Below, piece after piece: positions 34,630-43,223 of a DNA stretch of 43,829 nt. The stretch covers positions 1 to 43,829 of the forward strand of contig JAJQDY010000076.1 of the NCBI GenBank assembly GCA_021201965.1. Direction: 5' to 3'. The stretch is from Phascolarctobacterium sp. (GTDB lineage: Bacteria > Bacillota > Negativicutes > Acidaminococcales > Acidaminococcaceae). The notes beneath the pieces are model-generated. The model was not told the DNA's origin. It searched no databases and saw nothing but the letters and a program-made list of their open reading frames with translations. Every line of letters starts with the position of its first letter. Position 1 is the first letter of the stretch. The position numbers and the translations under genes were made by a program.

Positions 34630-36005
34630 TTATTCATTGCAGGATTCCAGAAGTTTTTTGGCGTCTATATATTGCGCAATGCCCTGGGCCACCTTTTTTG
34701 ATTCCCGCATGGCTAAAACCACAGTTGCAGGACCGTGAACAACGTCACCGCTGCTGAAGACGCCTGCGCGGGTAGTCATGCCATAGGGGCGGTCACGGGT
34801 TGTTACAAAGCCGCGGCCATCCACTTTAATACACTTAGTGGTTGATACAATGCGGGCCGATGGTTTTTGTCCGACAGCCAATATTACGTAGTCACAGGGG
34901 AGCACTTCCTGATTGCTTTCTTTAATAAACTGGTCGTAGGAAGTTTTGGTAACATTCTGCACAAGCAGGCCGGCAACTGTCGTTTCATCTGTATCACTTG
35001 GCAAATTGCAGGTATTATTCAAATCACATATCTGTTTTTTGTTAAGATAAGCTGTGGGCTGTTTTAAATAGTTGAATTGCACGCCTTCTTCCACGGCAGC
35101 CGTGTACTCTGAAGGAAATGCCGATATTTCAGCCTCGGTTTTGCGATAAACTATTGTAACATTACTGGCACTGCGGCGTATTGCAGTACGTGCTGCATCC
35201 ATTGCTACATTGCCAGCTCCTATTACTATCACGTTGTCGCCGGCATGCATCAGGGTCTCGCTTTCATCAAGGTTGCCGTTATCGGCTAAAAAAACCATGC
35301 GCAGGAAATATGTAGCCGGTTGGATACCGGAAAGTTTTTTGCCCGGAATATCAATGGTGCGTGGCAAGGGGGTTGTTCCGGTTCCCATAAAAATAGCATC
35401 AAATCCTGCAGCAAATAAATCGTCAACGGTAAAATCAACGCCAGCCAGCTGATTGGTTTTTATTTCCACTCCCAGGTGTAGGAGATTAGTGATCTCTTTA
35501 CGGACGATTGACTTTTGGAGATGGAATTCAGGAATACCAAACAGTAAAACGCCGCCAGGTTCGCTTTGGGCCTCAAAAACAGTTACCGCAAAGTCCATTT
35601 TGGCAAGGTCGCCTGCAGCAGTAAGTCCGGCAGGGCCGGAGCCGATGACGGCCACTTTTCCGCGTTTGCCGCTGGATGGATGGGCAGGCTTTAAATCATT
35701 ATCATGGGCAAAATCAGCTATAAACATTTTCAGGCTGCCAATCTCTATGCCGCATTTTTTGTTGGTAAGAATGCAATGGGATTTACATTGGCGCTCATGT
35801 GGCATATACGTCCGCATATAGCAGGCAGATTGCTGCGCTCTGAAATGATTTCGTATGCCATGCCGATATTGCCTTCGCTGAGGGCGCAGATAAATTGCGG
35901 AATATTGTTTTCTATAGGACAGCCCGTGCGGCACATAGGGCGTGCACAGTTAAGACAGCGCCTGGCTTCCTGGATTGCTTCTGCTGTGGTCATTGTTCTG
36001 CTCAT
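34630..36005 (-). pseudogene. glutamate synthase small subunit-like oxidoreductase (GltD family), frameshifted
   Basis: The N-terminus has the Cys-rich iron-sulfur domain (CLNCARPMCRTGCPIENNIPQF, CGRIC) in one frame; the rest continues in another frame as PHERQCKSHCIL, GSLKMFIADF, then the FAD site VAVIGSGPAGLTAAGDLA, FGIPEFHLQKSIV, the NADPH site VIGAGNVAMDAARTA and the terminal GVFSSGDVVHGPATVV. One C is missing near 35797 in what should be a CCC. The ATG at 36005 has AAAGGTGG upstream. No glutamate synthase large subunit is next to it, so it may be a GltD-like NADPH oxidoreductase. It follows cysE by 27 bases. Confidence 0.85.
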
Positions 36006-36032
36006 AATTGCCACCTTTTTTCGGGTTTCGGT

Positions 36033-36859: not shown

Positions 36860-36888
36860 TTGCTTAAAAATTATGGGAATGCTATAAT
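36860..36888 (+). promoter_or_regulatory. promoter of the M20-DUF3100 operon
   Basis: TTGCTT (36860-36865) and TATAAT (36883-36888) are exactly 17 bases apart, 67 bases before the GTG start. Confidence 0.7.
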
Positions 36889-36954
36889 TTATAATTGTAA
36901 AAAAGTAAAATATTTGTCCTTTCCGTAAGGATAAATAAACTGGAGGTATCTGCA

Positions 36955-38265
36955 GTGGATAAACAGGTTTTAAAGCAAAAAGTTTGCACCGCTATTGATG
37001 CCAATGCCAAGGATATAGAAATTATGGCAGACAGTATCGCAAGTGAGCCTGAACTCGGCTTTAAGGAAGCTAAGACTTCTGCTAAAGTGGCTGCTTTTCT
37101 GAAAGCATTAGGATTGGAGCTACAGACGGGGCTTGCTTTGACCGGAGTGAAGGCGCGGGCTAAAGGATCAGCACAAGGGCCTACGGCAGCCGTACTTGGT
37201 GAACTTGATGCTGTTGGATGCCATGAGAGCGATAAGGCAGATCCACTGACCGGAGCTGCCCATGCCTGCGGGCATAATTTGCAGATTGCAGCCATGCTGG
37301 GTACAGCTTGTGGAATTATGAAATCCGGTGTCATGGAGCATCTGTCTGGCGATGTAGTATTTTTCGGTGTACCGGCTGAGGAATACATTGAAATTACCTA
37401 CCGCAGGAAATTGCAGCAGGAGGGCAAACTTCATTTTATAAGCGGGAAAGGCCAGCTTATTTATGAAGGGGCTTTTGACGATATCGATATGGCAATGCAG
37501 ATACATTCAGATAAAAACATGCCAGAGCCCACTGTTTCCATTGGAACAAGCAGTAACGGCTTTGTCGGGAAAACTGTACGCTATATAGGAAAAACTGCCC
37601 ATGCAGCTGACGCTCCTCATGAAGGAGTGAATGCACTTAATGCAGCAATGATAGGCTTAATGGGAATAAATGCACTGCGCGAGACCTTTATGGAAAAAGA
37701 TGTGGTGCGGGTACATCCCATTATTGCCAAAGGCGGGGATTTTGTAAACTCCGTACCTTCTGATGTAAGAATGGAATTATACGTACGCGCGAAAACTATG
37801 GAGGCTATTGACAAGACCCACATTCGTGTAGATGCGGCACTAAAAGCCGGTGGTGATGCGGTGGGAGCTGAAACAGTGGTTGAAACACTCCCCGGCATGT
37901 TCCCCCTTGACTGTTGCCCGCGTATGAATGAGCTTTTTGTGGAAAATGCCAAATTGGCTGATCCGAATGTCGCAATAAAAGATTCAGGTCATTTCAGCGC
38001 TTCAACTGATATGGGTGATGTTTCACATATTATGCCGGTAATCCATCCTTTCATCGGTGGAACTACAGGACTTCTGCATACCGCAGGCTTTCATGTGGTG
38101 GATTTTAAGGCGGCAGCACTGTTGCCAGCAAAGGCTTTTGCCATGATGCTGATTGATCTCCTTTATGACGGAGCTGGAGAAGCTAAAGAAATTTTAGCTA
38201 ATTTCAAACCGCTGCTGACCAAGGAAGAATATATTGCCAAGTCTGAAAGTTACTTCAGTAACTGA
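36955..38265 (+). CDS. M20 family amidohydrolase/carboxypeptidase (AbgB-like)
   Basis: A 436-residue cytoplasmic metallohydrolase. Metal-site features are GELDAVGCHES (about 82), HACGHN (103-108), PAEEY (140-144) and MQIHSDKNMPEP. The dimerisation insert has GKTAHAADAPHEGVNALNA. This pattern is close to the AbgB/p-aminobenzoyl-glutamate hydrolase group, which cleave N-acyl amino acids. The GTG start is preceded by GGAGG. It is followed after 24 bases by a DUF3100 membrane protein, so uptake and cleavage of an amide-linked compound is a reasonable inference. Confidence 0.88.
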   Translation: MDKQVLKQKVCTAIDANAKDIEIMADSIASEPELGFKEAKTSAKVAAFLKALGLELQTGLALTGVKARAKGSAQGPTAAVLGELDAVGCHESDKADPLTGAAHACGHNLQIAAMLGTACGIMKSGVMEHLSGDVVFFGVPAEEYIEITYRRKLQQEGKLHFISGKGQLIYEGAFDDIDMAMQIHSDKNMPEPTVSIGTSSNGFVGKTVRYIGKTAHAADAPHEGVNALNAAMIGLMGINALRETFMEKDVVRVHPIIAKGGDFVNSVPSDVRMELYVRAKTMEAIDKTHIRVDAALKAGGDAVGAETVVETLPGMFPLDCCPRMNELFVENAKLADPNVAIKDSGHFSASTDMGDVSHIMPVIHPFIGGTTGLLHTAGFHVVDFKAAALLPAKAFAMMLIDLLYDGAGEAKEILANFKPLLTKEEYIAKSESYFSN

Positions 38266-38289
38266 TGATAAAATGTGGGAGGGTATTTA

Positions 38290-39192
38290 ATGACGAATAT
38301 TAAATTACACGCTATTGTTCTGGCACTTATCATCGTGTCAGAGCTGATAGGGACGCATACCATTAAAATTGGCGTAGGGACCATAGTTCTGTTACCCATG
38401 TTGTATGCTCTCCTTATCGGTATTTTCACAACACTCAAGTTTCTTAATCTATCAGGTAACAAGGAAATAAATGATGCCAGTGCATTACTGGGTGTTACAC
38501 TAATGCTGCTGATGGCCCGTTACGGTACTTTGGTAGGGCCGACTCTGCCAAAGATTATTGCTGCGTCCCCAGCACTTATTTTGCAGGAATTTGGCAACCT
38601 TGGAACCGTATTTATTGGTGTGCCGGTTGCAGTTATGTTGGGGTTGAAACGCGAAACAATTGGTGCGGCCCATTCTATTGCACGTGAGCCTAATGTGGCT
38701 TTGATCGGCGAACGCTATGGCCTTAACAGTACAGAAGGTCGCGGTGTAATGAGTGTCTACATAGCAGGCACCGTGTTTGGCACTATTTTCTTCGGTTTGA
38801 TGGCCAGTATTGCCGCTTCTGCTTTACCGTTCCATCCCTATTCTTTGGCAATGGCTGCCGGTGTAGGTTCTGCCAGCATGATGACTGCGGCAGTAGGATC
38901 TTTGAGTGCTATGTATCCGGATATGACGGAGCAGTTGGCTGCTTTTGGTGCGGCCAGTAACATGCTTTCCGGCCTCGACGGATTGTATATGTCTATTTGG
39001 GTAGCACTACCTGTAACCGAATGGCTTTATAAAAAATGCTATAAAGTAAAATATGGTGTGAGTCCTAGTGAAGATGAAGAAGGACTCAGTGAAGAAGACA
39101 AAGAAATAATTGAAGAAGAAAAAGAGATTATTAAAGATGAAGAAAAAAACATGGAAGCAGTTGAAGAACCCAGTAAGAAGGAGGGAGAGTAA
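38290..39192 (+). CDS. DUF3100 family membrane protein
   Basis: This 300-residue integral membrane protein has about eight hydrophobic helices followed by a highly charged C-terminal tail (residues about 258-300, alternating Glu and Lys). GLKRETIGAAHSIAREPNVALIGERYG and GVGSASMMTAAVGSLSAMYP are the conserved DUF3100 parts. The family has no established function. GGGAGGG precedes the ATG. The stop shares a base with the next ATG (TAATG), so the two membrane proteins are made together and may form one transporter with the M20 enzyme upstream. Confidence 0.8.
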   Translation: MTNIKLHAIVLALIIVSELIGTHTIKIGVGTIVLLPMLYALLIGIFTTLKFLNLSGNKEINDASALLGVTLMLLMARYGTLVGPTLPKIIAASPALILQEFGNLGTVFIGVPVAVMLGLKRETIGAAHSIAREPNVALIGERYGLNSTEGRGVMSVYIAGTVFGTIFFGLMASIAASALPFHPYSLAMAAGVGSASMMTAAVGSLSAMYPDMTEQLAAFGAASNMLSGLDGLYMSIWVALPVTEWLYKKCYKVKYGVSPSEDEEGLSEEDKEIIEEEKEIIKDEEKNMEAVEEPSKKEGE

Positions 39193-39638
39193 TGAATATT
39201 AAAGATTGCGTTATCATTTTATGCATAATGATTTTCATGAGCCTGTTCTCCAATGTATTGGGAACTCCGGCTACTGTAATAGAATCTATTCCTGGGCTTA
39301 TAATGCTGGCCGATATTGCATTGCTGGGCATTCTTATGGCGAAATATTTACCTGGGAATATCCCGTCAGTGGCTTATATCGTTACATTGGGCTGTTTTCT
39401 GACATATCCAGGCGTGCCTGGCAGTGATTTCATTACTGCACATGTTTCAAAAGTAGGGTTCATTGCTTTGTGTACTCCTCTTCTGGCTTATGCAGGAATT
39501 GCCATTGGTAAGGATTTAGATACTTTCAAGAAAAACGGCTGGCGCATCGTGGTACTTGCCTGTGTCGTATTTACTGGTACCTATATCGGCAGTGCAATTA
39601 TTGCACAGGCAATTTTGAAATTCCTGGGACAGATTTAA
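39192..39638 (+). CDS. small membrane protein, partner of DUF3100
   Basis: A 148-residue protein with about five membrane helices and very short loops. The last part, AIGKDLDTFKKNGWRIVVLACVVFTGTYIGSAI, resembles the helical hairpins of export-type carriers such as LysO/DUF340, but the match is weak. It overlaps the DUF3100 gene by one base and ends at a strong terminator, closing a three-gene operon. A two-component transporter is inferred. Confidence 0.7.
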   Translation: MNIKDCVIILCIMIFMSLFSNVLGTPATVIESIPGLIMLADIALLGILMAKYLPGNIPSVAYIVTLGCFLTYPGVPGSDFITAHVSKVGFIALCTPLLAYAGIAIGKDLDTFKKNGWRIVVLACVVFTGTYIGSAIIAQAILKFLGQI

Positions 39639-39642
39639 GGCA

Positions 39643-39676
39643 GAGAACCGGCTTCTTCAAGAAGCCGGTTCTTTTT
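39643..39676 (+). terminator. intrinsic terminator after the M20-DUF3100 operon
   Basis: AGAACCGGCTTCTT and AAGAAGCCGGTTCT pair fully, followed by TTTTTT. Confidence 0.92.
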
Positions 39677-39749
39677 TGCCTGAAAGATTGAATTTATGGG
39701 AATGGTAGAGTAAAATAATAACAGATAGTATTTACGAGGAGGAAGGATA

Positions 39750-40196
39750 ATGTCTAAAATTTTAACTGAGACTACTTTTCCCAGCGTCATTCACAATGAA
39801 GAGGTTTGTGATGAAATCGTAAAATGGGGTAATGCAAATGGTTATCCGCTAAAAAAAGCGAAATTATATAATAAAATGGGTGGATACGTAGGTTTTTCGC
39901 CAGATAATTATTTTATAAAAGCTACCCGCCTTCCTCCTGTTCCTGGCGGTTGGAAAGTTGTAGTTGAGAAATATGAGGCTGAAACGAGGATTATCGTTCT
40001 TAATGTCAAGCCTGGAACGACTGAAGCTAATCATTTTATTCTGAAAATGATGGATGAATATGTTAAGGAAGGGCTAAAGATGGAATTAGCAAACGATGCG
40101 TATGAATCCTATGGATTGTATTTGCGGGATCTTAGTGTTACAGGGCATCCAGTGCTGATTAATAATTTTGAAGATTTTGTTGAAAATATGCGTTAA
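39750..40196 (+). CDS. hypothetical protein
   Basis: A 148-residue soluble protein I do not recognise. It has CDEIVKWGNANGYPLKKAKLY, a mixed alpha/beta middle (GGWKVVVEKYEAETRIIVLNVKPG) and an acidic C-terminus (HPVLINNFEDFVENM). No membrane helix, signal peptide or metal motif is seen. GAGGAGG precedes the ATG and TAAAAT near 39712 may be its -10. It is a single gene between two terminators. Confidence 0.75.
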   Translation: MSKILTETTFPSVIHNEEVCDEIVKWGNANGYPLKKAKLYNKMGGYVGFSPDNYFIKATRLPPVPGGWKVVVEKYEAETRIIVLNVKPGTTEANHFILKMMDEYVKEGLKMELANDAYESYGLYLRDLSVTGHPVLINNFEDFVENMR

Positions 40197-40331: not shown

Positions 40332-40360
40332 TTGACAAGCTTAATAATATTTAGTACAAT
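40332..40360 (+). promoter_or_regulatory. promoter of the orphan riboswitch RNA
   Basis: TTGACA (40332-40337) and TACAAT (40355-40360) with exactly 17 bases between them. Transcription would start near 40367, just at the left edge of the structured RNA. Confidence 0.8.
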
Positions 40361-40366
40361 TACTTT

Positions 40367-40500
40367 GGCAAATCAATATTTCATATAGATAACTTATTTG
40401 GCGAAATTCCAAAGCGGTCTCGCCGCTGTGACAGGCTTGCCTGAAGCCAGCAGAGTTTTTTATATAAGCATATGTTTGGCCTGCGAGAGACAGGAAAAGA
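40367..40500 (+). ncRNA. cobalamin riboswitch-like RNA
   Basis: GGCGAAATTCC (40409-40419), then AAAGCGG-TCTCGCCGCTGTGACAGG and GCCTGAAGCCAGCAGA, follow the consensus order of cobalamin riboswitches (GGTGAAATTCC, GCGGTCCCGCCACTGTGA, AAGCCAG). The B12-box end is less typical, with a short insert before GGCCTGCGAGAGACAGG. No coding gene follows on this strand. The match is by eye, so the class is likely but not proven. Confidence 0.55.
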
Positions 40501-40527
40501 TGTTATCACTAAAGATTTTGTTTATGT

Positions 40528-40672
40528 GAGAATGGCAGAATCTGAAATGTTTGCATTAACCGTTCCTCAGCAGAGGGACGGTTTCTTGCTGTTATTTGCA
40601 GGTTGAAATATTGGTTTTATTAAGAACATAAGCAAACTGGACACTTTGCTTATAGCAGATTCTGCCGTTCTT
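40528..40672 (+). ncRNA. structured non-coding segment downstream of the riboswitch
   Basis: This segment has no credible gene. A terminator-like hairpin (40558-40583, AACCGTTCCTC with GAGGGACGGTT, then a short T-run) and a perfect 9-base hairpin ATAAGCAAA/TTTGCTTAT (40628-40653) are enclosed by long complementary arms at 40528-40544 and 40656-40672 that match at nearly every base. An RNA that switches between a short and a long form is possible. A 44-codon frame at 40472-40606 runs through the terminator and is not believed. Confidence 0.5.
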
Positions 40673-40734
40673 AGATGAGATGTTGAATTCTCCTTCCCTC
40701 TTAAGCATGTTGTAGGGGTGCAGCAATGCTAAAT

Positions 40735-40765
40735 AAAAAAGCTGTCGCAGTTCGACAGCTTTTTT
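40735..40765. terminator. bidirectional terminator between the RNA locus and chrA
   Basis: AAAAAAGCTGTCG and CGACAGCTTTTTT pair perfectly around a short loop; it works on both strands. Confidence 0.9.
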
Positions 40766-40776
40766 ATTTCATAGCC

Positions 40777-42056: not shown

Positions 42057-42989
42057 TTATTGGGGGTGCAGTTCTAATGGCAATATAGGCAGTTTAAAAT
42101 GAAACGCCTCACTCAATGGATTTACGTGTACCATGCAGTGTTTTACTTTCGGGAAATTAGTTTCAATAGCAGTGTGAACGGTTTCTGCAATATGGTGTGC
42201 ATTTAAAAGGCTAAGGTTATCATTTACACTTATTTCGATGTCGACATAAATACGGTTACCAAAAATTCTGGTTGTCAGGCGATCAAGATTCATAACTCCG
42301 GGAACTTTTGAGATCAATTTGTTCATGGCGGCGGTAGTTTCCTCATCACAGCTGTGATCTACCATTTTTTCCATGGCATCCGCAAAAATTTCATATGCTG
42401 TGTATAAAATCATGAGGCATATGAGAATACTTGCAACAGGGTCGAGAATAGGATATCCCATACGAGCGCCAAATATACCTATAAAACTTCCAACGGAGGA
42501 GAGAGAATCACTGCGATGACGCCATGCTTCTGCCAGTAATGCACCCGAGGCAATTTTTTTTGCGGCAGATCTGGTATACCAGAACATAGCTTCTTTAATA
42601 ATTATAGAAATTGCAGCTGCCCACAGAGCAATTTTCCCTGGCACGACTAGCGTTGCATTAGAAGCAAAAATCTTTTGCAACCCATTATAGCCTATGGTTA
42701 TGGCGATGAAAACTAAGATTACGGAAAGAATGATAGCAGCTACACATTCCAAACGTTCGTGCCCGTACTGATGGGTATCGTCAGATGCCTTATTAGATAA
42801 TTTTACTCCTATCATGACAATTAATGTGCCAATGACATCGGATGCAGAATGGATACCATCAGAAAACATGGCGGTTGAATTAGCAAAAAAACCTGCTACT
42901 AATTTCTCGAATGACAAGATAAGGTTGCCAATTATATTATTTATAGAAACAGTTATAGCAATTTTCTCAGATTCGTTAGTGAAATGCAT
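42057..42989 (-). CDS. cation diffusion facilitator (CDF) family metal exporter
   Basis: A 310-residue transporter with six membrane helices and a cytoplasmic C-terminal domain. Metal-site motifs are FSDGIHSASDV in helix 2 and AWRHRSDSLSSVGS in helix 5, with HQYGHERLE between helices 2 and 3. That matches the CDF family (zinc, iron, manganese, cobalt or nickel export). The C-terminal domain has VDIEISVNDNLSLLNAHHIAETVH. The 5' leader contains a hairpin with a T-run (see 43046), suggesting metal-responsive control. Which metal is exported is not determined. Confidence 0.93.
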   Translation of the reverse strand: MHFTNESEKIAITVSINNIIGNLILSFEKLVAGFFANSTAMFSDGIHSASDVIGTLIVMIGVKLSNKASDDTHQYGHERLECVAAIILSVILVFIAITIGYNGLQKIFASNATLVVPGKIALWAAAISIIIKEAMFWYTRSAAKKIASGALLAEAWRHRSDSLSSVGSFIGIFGARMGYPILDPVASILICLMILYTAYEIFADAMEKMVDHSCDEETTAAMNKLISKVPGVMNLDRLTTRIFGNRIYVDIEISVNDNLSLLNAHHIAETVHTAIETNFPKVKHCMVHVNPLSEAFHFKLPILPLELHPQ

Positions 42990-43045
42990 ATTTATTCCTT
43001 TTTATAGAATATTACTGTAATTATTCAGATATTATATTTATATTT

Positions 43046-43223
43046 ATAGAAAAACATCTGCGAACAGTAACTGTCCCGCAGACGTTTAAGATAGCATCTA
43101 TTGCCTGTGAAGGCCCGACTGATAAACAGAAATATTTATCTCCTGATCAGATTGTACTGTAATTAAATTTGCAGTGTAAAGAGATTATTATGTATTTTAA
43201 GTGGTTAGCTAGAGGTTTGTCAA
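43046..43223 (-). promoter_or_regulatory. promoter and terminator-bearing leader of the CDF gene
   Basis: Read on the minus strand, TTGACA (43218-43223) and TTAAAA (43195-43200) have 17-base spacing. About 100 bases downstream, a hairpin AAACGTCTGCG/CGCAGATGTTT with inner ACAGT/ACTGT ends in TTTTT, before the ORF begins at 42989. The leader also has GGGCCTTCACAGGC and GGGACAGTTACTGTTC. This fits a metal-sensing riboswitch such as the NiCo (czcD) class, but that identity is not proven. Confidence 0.45.

What the first reader, a model, noticed from the sequence alone, without database searches (positions are those of the whole stretch)
36955..39638. M20 hydrolase-DUF3100-small membrane protein operon as a candidate uptake or export system
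Three genes with tight spacing (24 bases, then a one-base overlap), own promoter and terminator combine an AbgB-like metallohydrolase with two membrane proteins, one from a family of unknown function with a charged Glu/Lys tail. By analogy with abgAB-abgT, the membrane pair may move an amide-linked compound that the hydrolase cleaves. DUF3100 itself has no assigned role.
Basis: partly seen in the sequence, partly recalled or inferred. Interest (0 to 1): 0.6.

Follow-up and report, generated by a model that had tools for sequence, protein, structure and literature searches.

The report
Two-part transporter paired with amide hydrolase
Two membrane proteins of unknown function are almost certainly the two pieces of one membrane transporter, distantly related to the LrgAB and LysO transporters but with the pieces in reverse order, and across bacteria and archaea they travel with enzymes that cut amide bonds, so the set probably imports and splits a small amide-linked amino-acid compound.

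Summary
The three-gene operon is real and as described: a cytosolic M20 hydrolase, DUF3100 (PF11299) and a 148-aa membrane protein (SM), with good ribosome-binding sites and a strong terminator. SM is adjacent to DUF3100, or fused to it in seven cases, in 98 of 99 loci from about ten phyla including archaea. A metallo-amidohydrolase lies within 2.5 kb in 91 of 99 (85 M20, 6 Amidohydro_1), against about 3% expected. In 61 related genomes the window-type M20 and DUF3100 co-occur (30 both, 28 neither, 3 discordant). The Glu/Lys tail is not a family feature. New here: AlphaFold2 models (best for a natural DUF3100-SM fusion, pTM 0.82) show DUF3100 as six helices plus two reentrant hairpins separated by one helix, the reentrant-helix-reentrant fold of LrgB, LysO and PSE in the CPA/AT elevator superfamily. 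Profile comparisons rank these families above unrelated membrane controls, but weakly, and no solved structure matches at E<=0.001. The small subunit comes last, opposite to LrgA-LrgB and LysO. Most likely it is a two-subunit elevator transporter importing an amide-linked carboxylate for cytosolic hydrolysis; substrate and direction are inferred.

The parts
36860..36888 (+). Candidate promoter: TTGCTT, 17-base spacer, extended -10 TGCTATAAT
   Evidence: Read directly from the sequence; not listed by the consensus scan, so only suggestive
36942..36946 (+). Shine-Dalgarno GGAGG of the M20 gene
   Evidence: sequence
36955..38265 (+). M20-family metallo-amidohydrolase, 436 aa, cytosolic (no N-terminal hydrophobic segment); metal-ligand motifs HACGHN (103-108), PAEE (140-143), H184 and H375 intact
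38278..38282 (+). Shine-Dalgarno GGAGG of DUF3100
   Evidence: sequence
38290..39192 (+). DUF3100 (PF11299) large membrane subunit, 300 aa: predicted 6 helices plus 2 reentrant hairpins; the charged C-terminal tail (about residues 256-300) is lineage-specific
38653..38715 (+). Predicted reentrant hairpin 1 (residues 122-142) with tip motif SIARE (S129, R132, E133)
38836..38913 (+). Predicted reentrant hairpin 2 (residues 183-208) with tip motif GVGSASMM (191-198)
39180..39184 (+). Shine-Dalgarno GGAGG of the small subunit, inside the end of DUF3100
   Evidence: sequence
39192..39638 (+). Small membrane subunit (SM), 148 aa; obligate partner of DUF3100, distant similarity to LrgA/LysO and to the N-terminal half of DUF3100
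39642..39677 (+). Intrinsic terminator (15-bp stem, T run)

Best explanation
DUF3100 and the small protein are the large (B) and small (A) subunits of one secondary transporter of the CPA/AT superfamily, of the reentrant-helix-reentrant type seen in LrgB, LysO and the putative sulfate exporters. DUF3100 carries four scaffold-type helices, then the transport core (hairpin 1, helix, hairpin 2), then a last helix; the small protein repeats the scaffold unit and completes the scaffold. The core moves elevator-fashion. The substrate sits between the hairpin tips, where the invariant R132 and the GxGSxSMM loop lie, and is probably a carboxylate. The pair brings a small amide-linked amino-acid derivative (an N-acyl amino acid or dipeptide-like compound) into the cell, and the cytosolic M20 enzyme hydrolyses it so the amino acid can be used. 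Shown: operon, obligate pairing, fusions, co-inheritance with the hydrolase, intact metal-ligand motifs. Predicted by model: fold. Inferred: elevator movement, substrate class, direction.
For: Pairing: SM adjacent to or fused with DUF3100 in 98 of 99 loci, the exception being a contig end. Fusions, always DUF3100 first: Spirochaetes, Variovorax, Klebsiella, Streptomyces, Agrobacterium, Burkholderia and a Bacillota_C genome. All 22 SM matches in 300 Bacillota_C genomes adjoin a DUF3100 match. Hydrolase link: M20 or Amidohydro_1 within 2.5 kb in 91 of 99 loci against about 3% expected, upstream, downstream or divergent, with the M20s from at least two distinct branches. Co-inheritance: 30 both, 28 neither, 3 discordant in 61 genomes, and in five genera with variable members both genes are present or absent together; in two genomes they sit on different contigs yet still co-occur. 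Fold: AlphaFold2 of a natural fusion, pLDDT 83.8, pTM 0.82; DUF3100 alone gives the same 6H-2RH order. This matches the published LrgB topology 6H-2RH with two reentrants around one helix (PMC8396727). hhalign scores for DUF3100: PSE 35.6, SM 34.4, LysO-A 32.7, LrgB 30.9, LysO-B 28.8 versus TauE 19.5 and ChrA 20.6. SM hits LysO PF03956 at 7e-5. Reentrant segments are the most conserved regions. Uptake: beside the pair lie serine/threonine dehydratase, aminotransferase, oxidoreductase and aldehyde dehydrogenase genes, which suggests catabolism.
Against: The profile matches are weak in absolute terms (probabilities 8-41%), and a self-reversed decoy reached 29.9 for DUF3100. Foldseek finds no solved structure at E<=0.001; CitS leads for the fusion (E 0.011, probability 0.93) but with TM 0.23-0.28, and the DUF3100-only model has no convincing hit. 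The nearest characterised relative of SM, LysO, is an exporter. Most loci come from one phylum and are not independent. No substrate was tested.
Confidence: 0.55

Rival explanations
1. Exporter: as in LysO, the pair pumps out the amino acid or acid released when the cytosolic hydrolase cleaves a dipeptide or N-acyl compound that entered by another route, protecting the cell from overload or from a toxic analogue.
For: SM's only plausible Pfam similarity is to the lysine exporter LysO; LysO exports lysine/thialysine, probably in antiport with protons (PMC8498466). Several different hydrolase families accompany the same transporter, which would fit a shared product.
Against: LysO's essential acidic pair lies in its helix 7 and the following reentrant segment; no equivalent pair is evident in DUF3100, whose hairpin tips instead carry a conserved Arg-Glu and a Gly/Ser loop. 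Neighbouring catabolic genes suggest use, not disposal.
Confidence: 0.22
2. LrgAB-like facilitator for a simple small carboxylate (pyruvate, glycolate or similar); the hydrolase link reflects a shared pathway rather than a shared molecule.
For: Topology and two-gene layout match LrgAB; LrgAB-type proteins move pyruvate in Bacillus subtilis and Streptococcus mutans (abstracts of PMC5626966 and PMC6790026).
Against: 91 of 99 loci carry an amide hydrolase next to the transporter, and LrgB exists separately in the same genome (G000:C73).
Confidence: 0.12
3. DUF3100 is a membrane protein of some other fold, and the link to CPA/AT transporters is compositional.
For: No solved-structure match at E<=0.001; low absolute profile probabilities.
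Against: Unrelated membrane families (TauE, ChrA) score at noise level while every CPA/AT family tested ranks above them except LrgA; two independent models show the same hairpin-helix-hairpin order with the conserved motifs at the tips.
Confidence: 0.11

Closest known systems
LrgAB/CidAB (PF03788 + PF04172) and the plant LrgAB fusion
   Same: Small plus large subunit in one operon or one fused protein; large subunit 6 helices plus 2 reentrant hairpins; collinear though weak profile match over about 158 columns
   Different: Subunit order reversed (large first); own Pfam family; tip motifs differ; linked to amide hydrolases
LysO lysine exporter (PF03956), split LysA/LysB form
   Same: Split small and large subunits, scaffold-unit repeat, weak Pfam match of SM to the first half of the LysO model
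   Different: Small subunit precedes the large one in LysO; essential E233/D261 pair not evident in DUF3100; LysO is an exporter
Putative sulfate exporter family PSE (PF03601)
   Same: Reentrant-helix-reentrant fold (PMC8396727); best profile score with DUF3100, 171 columns
   Different: Single chain; hairpin motifs differ
E. coli abgAB-abgT
   Same: M20 hydrolase genes next to a transporter gene
   Different: M20 only 31% identical to AbgB and no BLAST match to AbgA; AbgT is a different transporter family
HmrA / PM20D2 (Xaa-Arg dipeptidase, beta-Ala-Lys dipeptidase)
   Same: Best solved relatives of the window's M20 (1.8e-28, 4e-24)
   Different: No transporter partner known to me; low overall identity

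Membership tests
PF11299 DUF3100 | Full-length match above the gathering score | tested here: met
   4.2e-101, 337.7 bits against a cut-off of 27, positions 1-234 of 235
CPA/AT superfamily, reentrant-helix-reentrant type | Two reentrant hairpins separated by a single membrane helix | tested here: met
   Predicted models only: hairpins 122-142 and 183-208 around helix 148-178; 134-155, 160-190 and 195-220 in the fusion. Definition from PMC8396727
CPA/AT superfamily, reentrant-helix-reentrant type | Sequence homology to known members | tested here: inconclusive
   PSE, LysO and LrgB score above TauE and ChrA controls, but with probabilities of 8-41%
CPA/AT superfamily, reentrant-helix-reentrant type | Match to a solved CPA/AT structure | tested here: inconclusive
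   CitS top for the fusion, E 0.011, TM below 0.3; nothing at E<=0.001
LrgAB (PF04172/PF03788) | Match to the LrgB and LrgA Pfam models | tested here: not met
   Neither model reported for the window proteins at E<=1
LrgAB / LysO | Small subunit gene or domain precedes the large one | tested here: not met
   Order is large-small in the operon and in all seven fusions; LysA and LrgA lie upstream of LysB and LrgB
LysO (PF03956) | Match above the gathering score | tested here: not met
   SM 22.8 bits against 23.8, first 78 of 190 positions only
LysO (PF03956) | Acidic pair E233/D261 needed for export | tested here: inconclusive
   No clear equivalent among conserved charged residues of DUF3100 (E18, E100, R121, E122, R132, E133, E149); alignment too weak to place E233/D261
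M20 metallo-amidohydrolase | Metal-ligand motifs and dimerisation domain | tested here: met
   HACGHN, PAEE, H184 and H375 align with AbgA, AbgB and other M20s; M20_dimer 6.6e-7
AbgB-type hydrolase | p-aminobenzoyl-glutamate hydrolysis with an AbgA partner | not testable with these tools
   No second M20 gene lies next to this one; activity needs an assay

The most novel reading that the evidence does not exclude
DUF3100-SM is an unrecognised family of the CPA/AT elevator superfamily with permuted subunit order (core subunit first, scaffold subunit last), dedicated across bacteria and archaea to moving amide-linked amino-acid derivatives together with whichever cytosolic amide hydrolase the host uses.
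Probability: 0.4. Interest if true: 0.65.

Novelty: new variant of a known kind. Interest (0 to 1): 0.5.

Why it matters
DUF3100 is carried by gut commensals, soil bacteria, haloarchaea and enterobacterial plasmids, yet no paper in the searched library names it, and two surveys of CPA/AT families do not list it. Assigning it a fold, an obligate partner and a linked enzyme turns an unknown into a testable two-gene transporter and adds a case of reversed subunit order to the study of how these transporters evolved by splitting, fusing and rearranging units. If the substrate is an N-acyl amino acid or dipeptide, it would mark an uptake route for such compounds in gut bacteria.

Tried and rejected
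LysO membership for SM: the Pfam hit is below cut-off and covers only the first half. LrgB membership for DUF3100: no Pfam hit, and hhalign is weak although collinear. First hhalign rounds with shallow alignments were inconclusive, and the first control clusters appeared to be LrgA, LrgB and LysO themselves, so they were not controls; TauE, ChrA and reversed profiles replaced them. First DUF and SM profiles were contaminated by fused ORFs, giving false cross-hits, and were rebuilt. First mixed alignment for folding misplaced the small subunits' N-terminal parts onto DUF3100 and was rebuilt with trimmed rows and in-frame read-through rows. Viral contigs and phage records held no relative. Searches centred on other phyla were not possible, so breadth comes from one genome-contig scan and plasmid records.

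Full report
Observation. The three ORFs, the 24-base gap and the one-base overlap are as reported. The DUF3100 start is best placed at the ATG at 38290, behind GGAGG; the GTG at 38275 is only the mechanical ORF start. Each gene has a GGAGG at a normal distance. A 15-bp terminator hairpin with a T run follows the last gene (-23.6 kcal/mol); the pattern scan missed it. The promoter is an extended -10 read by eye and is only plausible. The enzyme has no N-terminal hydrophobic segment, so it is taken to be cytosolic, and its M20 metal-ligand motifs are intact. The window lies in a 1.38-Mb genome of 92 contigs; the closest relative found is a Phascolarctobacterium MAG, 92% identical in DUF3100.

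Neighbourhood. DUF3100 was searched in 61 related genomes, 399 genomes of the phylum, the GTDB contig collection and plasmid records. After removing duplicates, 99 loci were tabulated. SM is adjacent or fused in 98; in the other (L153) DUF3100 lies at the end of the contig. An M20 (85) or Amidohydro_1 (6) gene lies within 2.5 kb in 91. Of the remaining eight, four lie at contig ends (L035, L142, L149, L153); Klebsiella has its M20 2.9 kb upstream with an IS903 copy between; Sulfitobacter has an AstE/AspA-type deacylase instead; Chelatococcus and one Negativicutes genome (L141) show none. With five M20 genes in 1.375 Mb the chance expectation is about 3%. The loci are dominated by Bacillota_C but include Fusobacteriota, Synergistota, Spirochaetes, Desulfovibrio, Clostridia, alpha-, beta- and gammaproteobacteria, Streptomyces, Leuconostoc and Haladaptatus.

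Co-inheritance. The window-type M20 (E<=1e-60) and DUF3100 occur together in 30 of 61 relatives, neither in 28, one alone in three, one of which is a contig-end fragment. Fisher p is 6e-14 without correction for relatedness; more telling, five genera with variable members have both genes or neither in every member. In two genomes the genes lie on different contigs and still co-occur.

Pairing and fusion. Seven DUF3100-SM fusions were found, all in the order DUF3100 then SM; three are annotated as single CDSs. In 300 phylum genomes every SM match lies beside DUF3100.

Fold. The natural Spirochaetes fusion was modelled with unpaired and in-frame paired rows: pLDDT 83.8, pTM 0.82. The window DUF3100 alone gave 74.8 and 0.64, with the same order: four helices, hairpin, helix, hairpin, helix. 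The lower score without SM is compatible with SM completing the fold, but target and alignment differ, so it is not a clean comparison. PMC8396727 defines a reentrant-helix-reentrant fold for PSE, LrgB (6H-2RH) and LysO, with small partners LrgA (4H) and LysA (3H). Profile comparison puts PSE, SM, LysO-A, LrgB and LysO-B above TauE and ChrA for DUF3100, and DUF3100 and LrgA highest for SM. These are rank orders with low absolute probabilities. SM also aligns with the N-terminal helices of DUF3100, as expected of a repeated scaffold unit. Foldseek gives CitS first for the fusion but with low TM and nothing convincing for DUF3100 alone; one of the surveys lists LrgA and LrgB as of unknown structure and gives no determined topology for LysO and PSE.

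Sites. Conservation is highest in the two reentrant segments. Invariant in 30 diverse sequences are E100, R132, G191, G193, S194 and M197, among others. R132 sits at the tip of hairpin 1, which suggests a carboxylate substrate; this is inference.

Function. Enzymes beside the pair hydrolyse amide or related C-N bonds (M20 of several kinds, Amidohydro_1, AstE/AspA type), and further neighbours are serine/threonine dehydratase, aminotransferase, oxidoreductase and aldehyde dehydrogenase genes. Uptake followed by hydrolysis is the simplest reading. Export of the product, as in LysO, is the main rival. Nothing here identifies the substrate.

Known or new. No paper in the library names DUF3100 or PF11299, and two CPA/AT surveys do not list it. 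Whether Pfam's clan table or TCDB already places it could not be checked. It fails Pfam membership of LrgB, LrgA and LysO and has the opposite subunit order, so it is reported as a new variant that probably works like them, not as a member of those families.

Noticed in passing
window 40332-40776: An AdoCbl riboswitch (40370-40506, +) with a promoter-like site 40332-40360 has no plus-strand gene downstream. It is followed by a strongly folded 266-base stretch (-99 kcal/mol, long closing stem GGCAGAATCTG/CAGATTCTGCC) ending in a terminator and facing convergent chrA genes. About 94% identical in L031; no Rfam family above its gathering score downstream. Possibly a B12-controlled noncoding RNA.
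   Followed up: partly
window 42057-43160: NiCo riboswitch (43069-43160, -) upstream of a cation-efflux (CDF) gene 42057-42989 (-): an ordinary arrangement.
   Followed up: yes
window 39750-40196: 148-aa protein directly after the operon terminator with no Pfam or NCBIfam match.
   Followed up: no
window 34630-36014: A Pyr_redox_2 ORF (34630-35934, -) overlaps a second minus-strand ORF (35745-36014) in another frame that reads like the N-terminal part of a glutamate-synthase-type oxidoreductase: possible frameshift or assembly error.
   Followed up: no
L076 4923-6257 and upstream: Klebsiella plasmid: IS903B inserted between an M20-serine dehydratase pair and the DUF3100-SM fusion gene, apparently splitting an operon.
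   Followed up: no
L143, L144, L145, L148: DUF3100-SM followed by an ATZ/TRZ-type Amidohydro_1 gene instead of M20; in L143 an IclR-type regulator gene lies directly upstream of DUF3100.
   Followed up: partly
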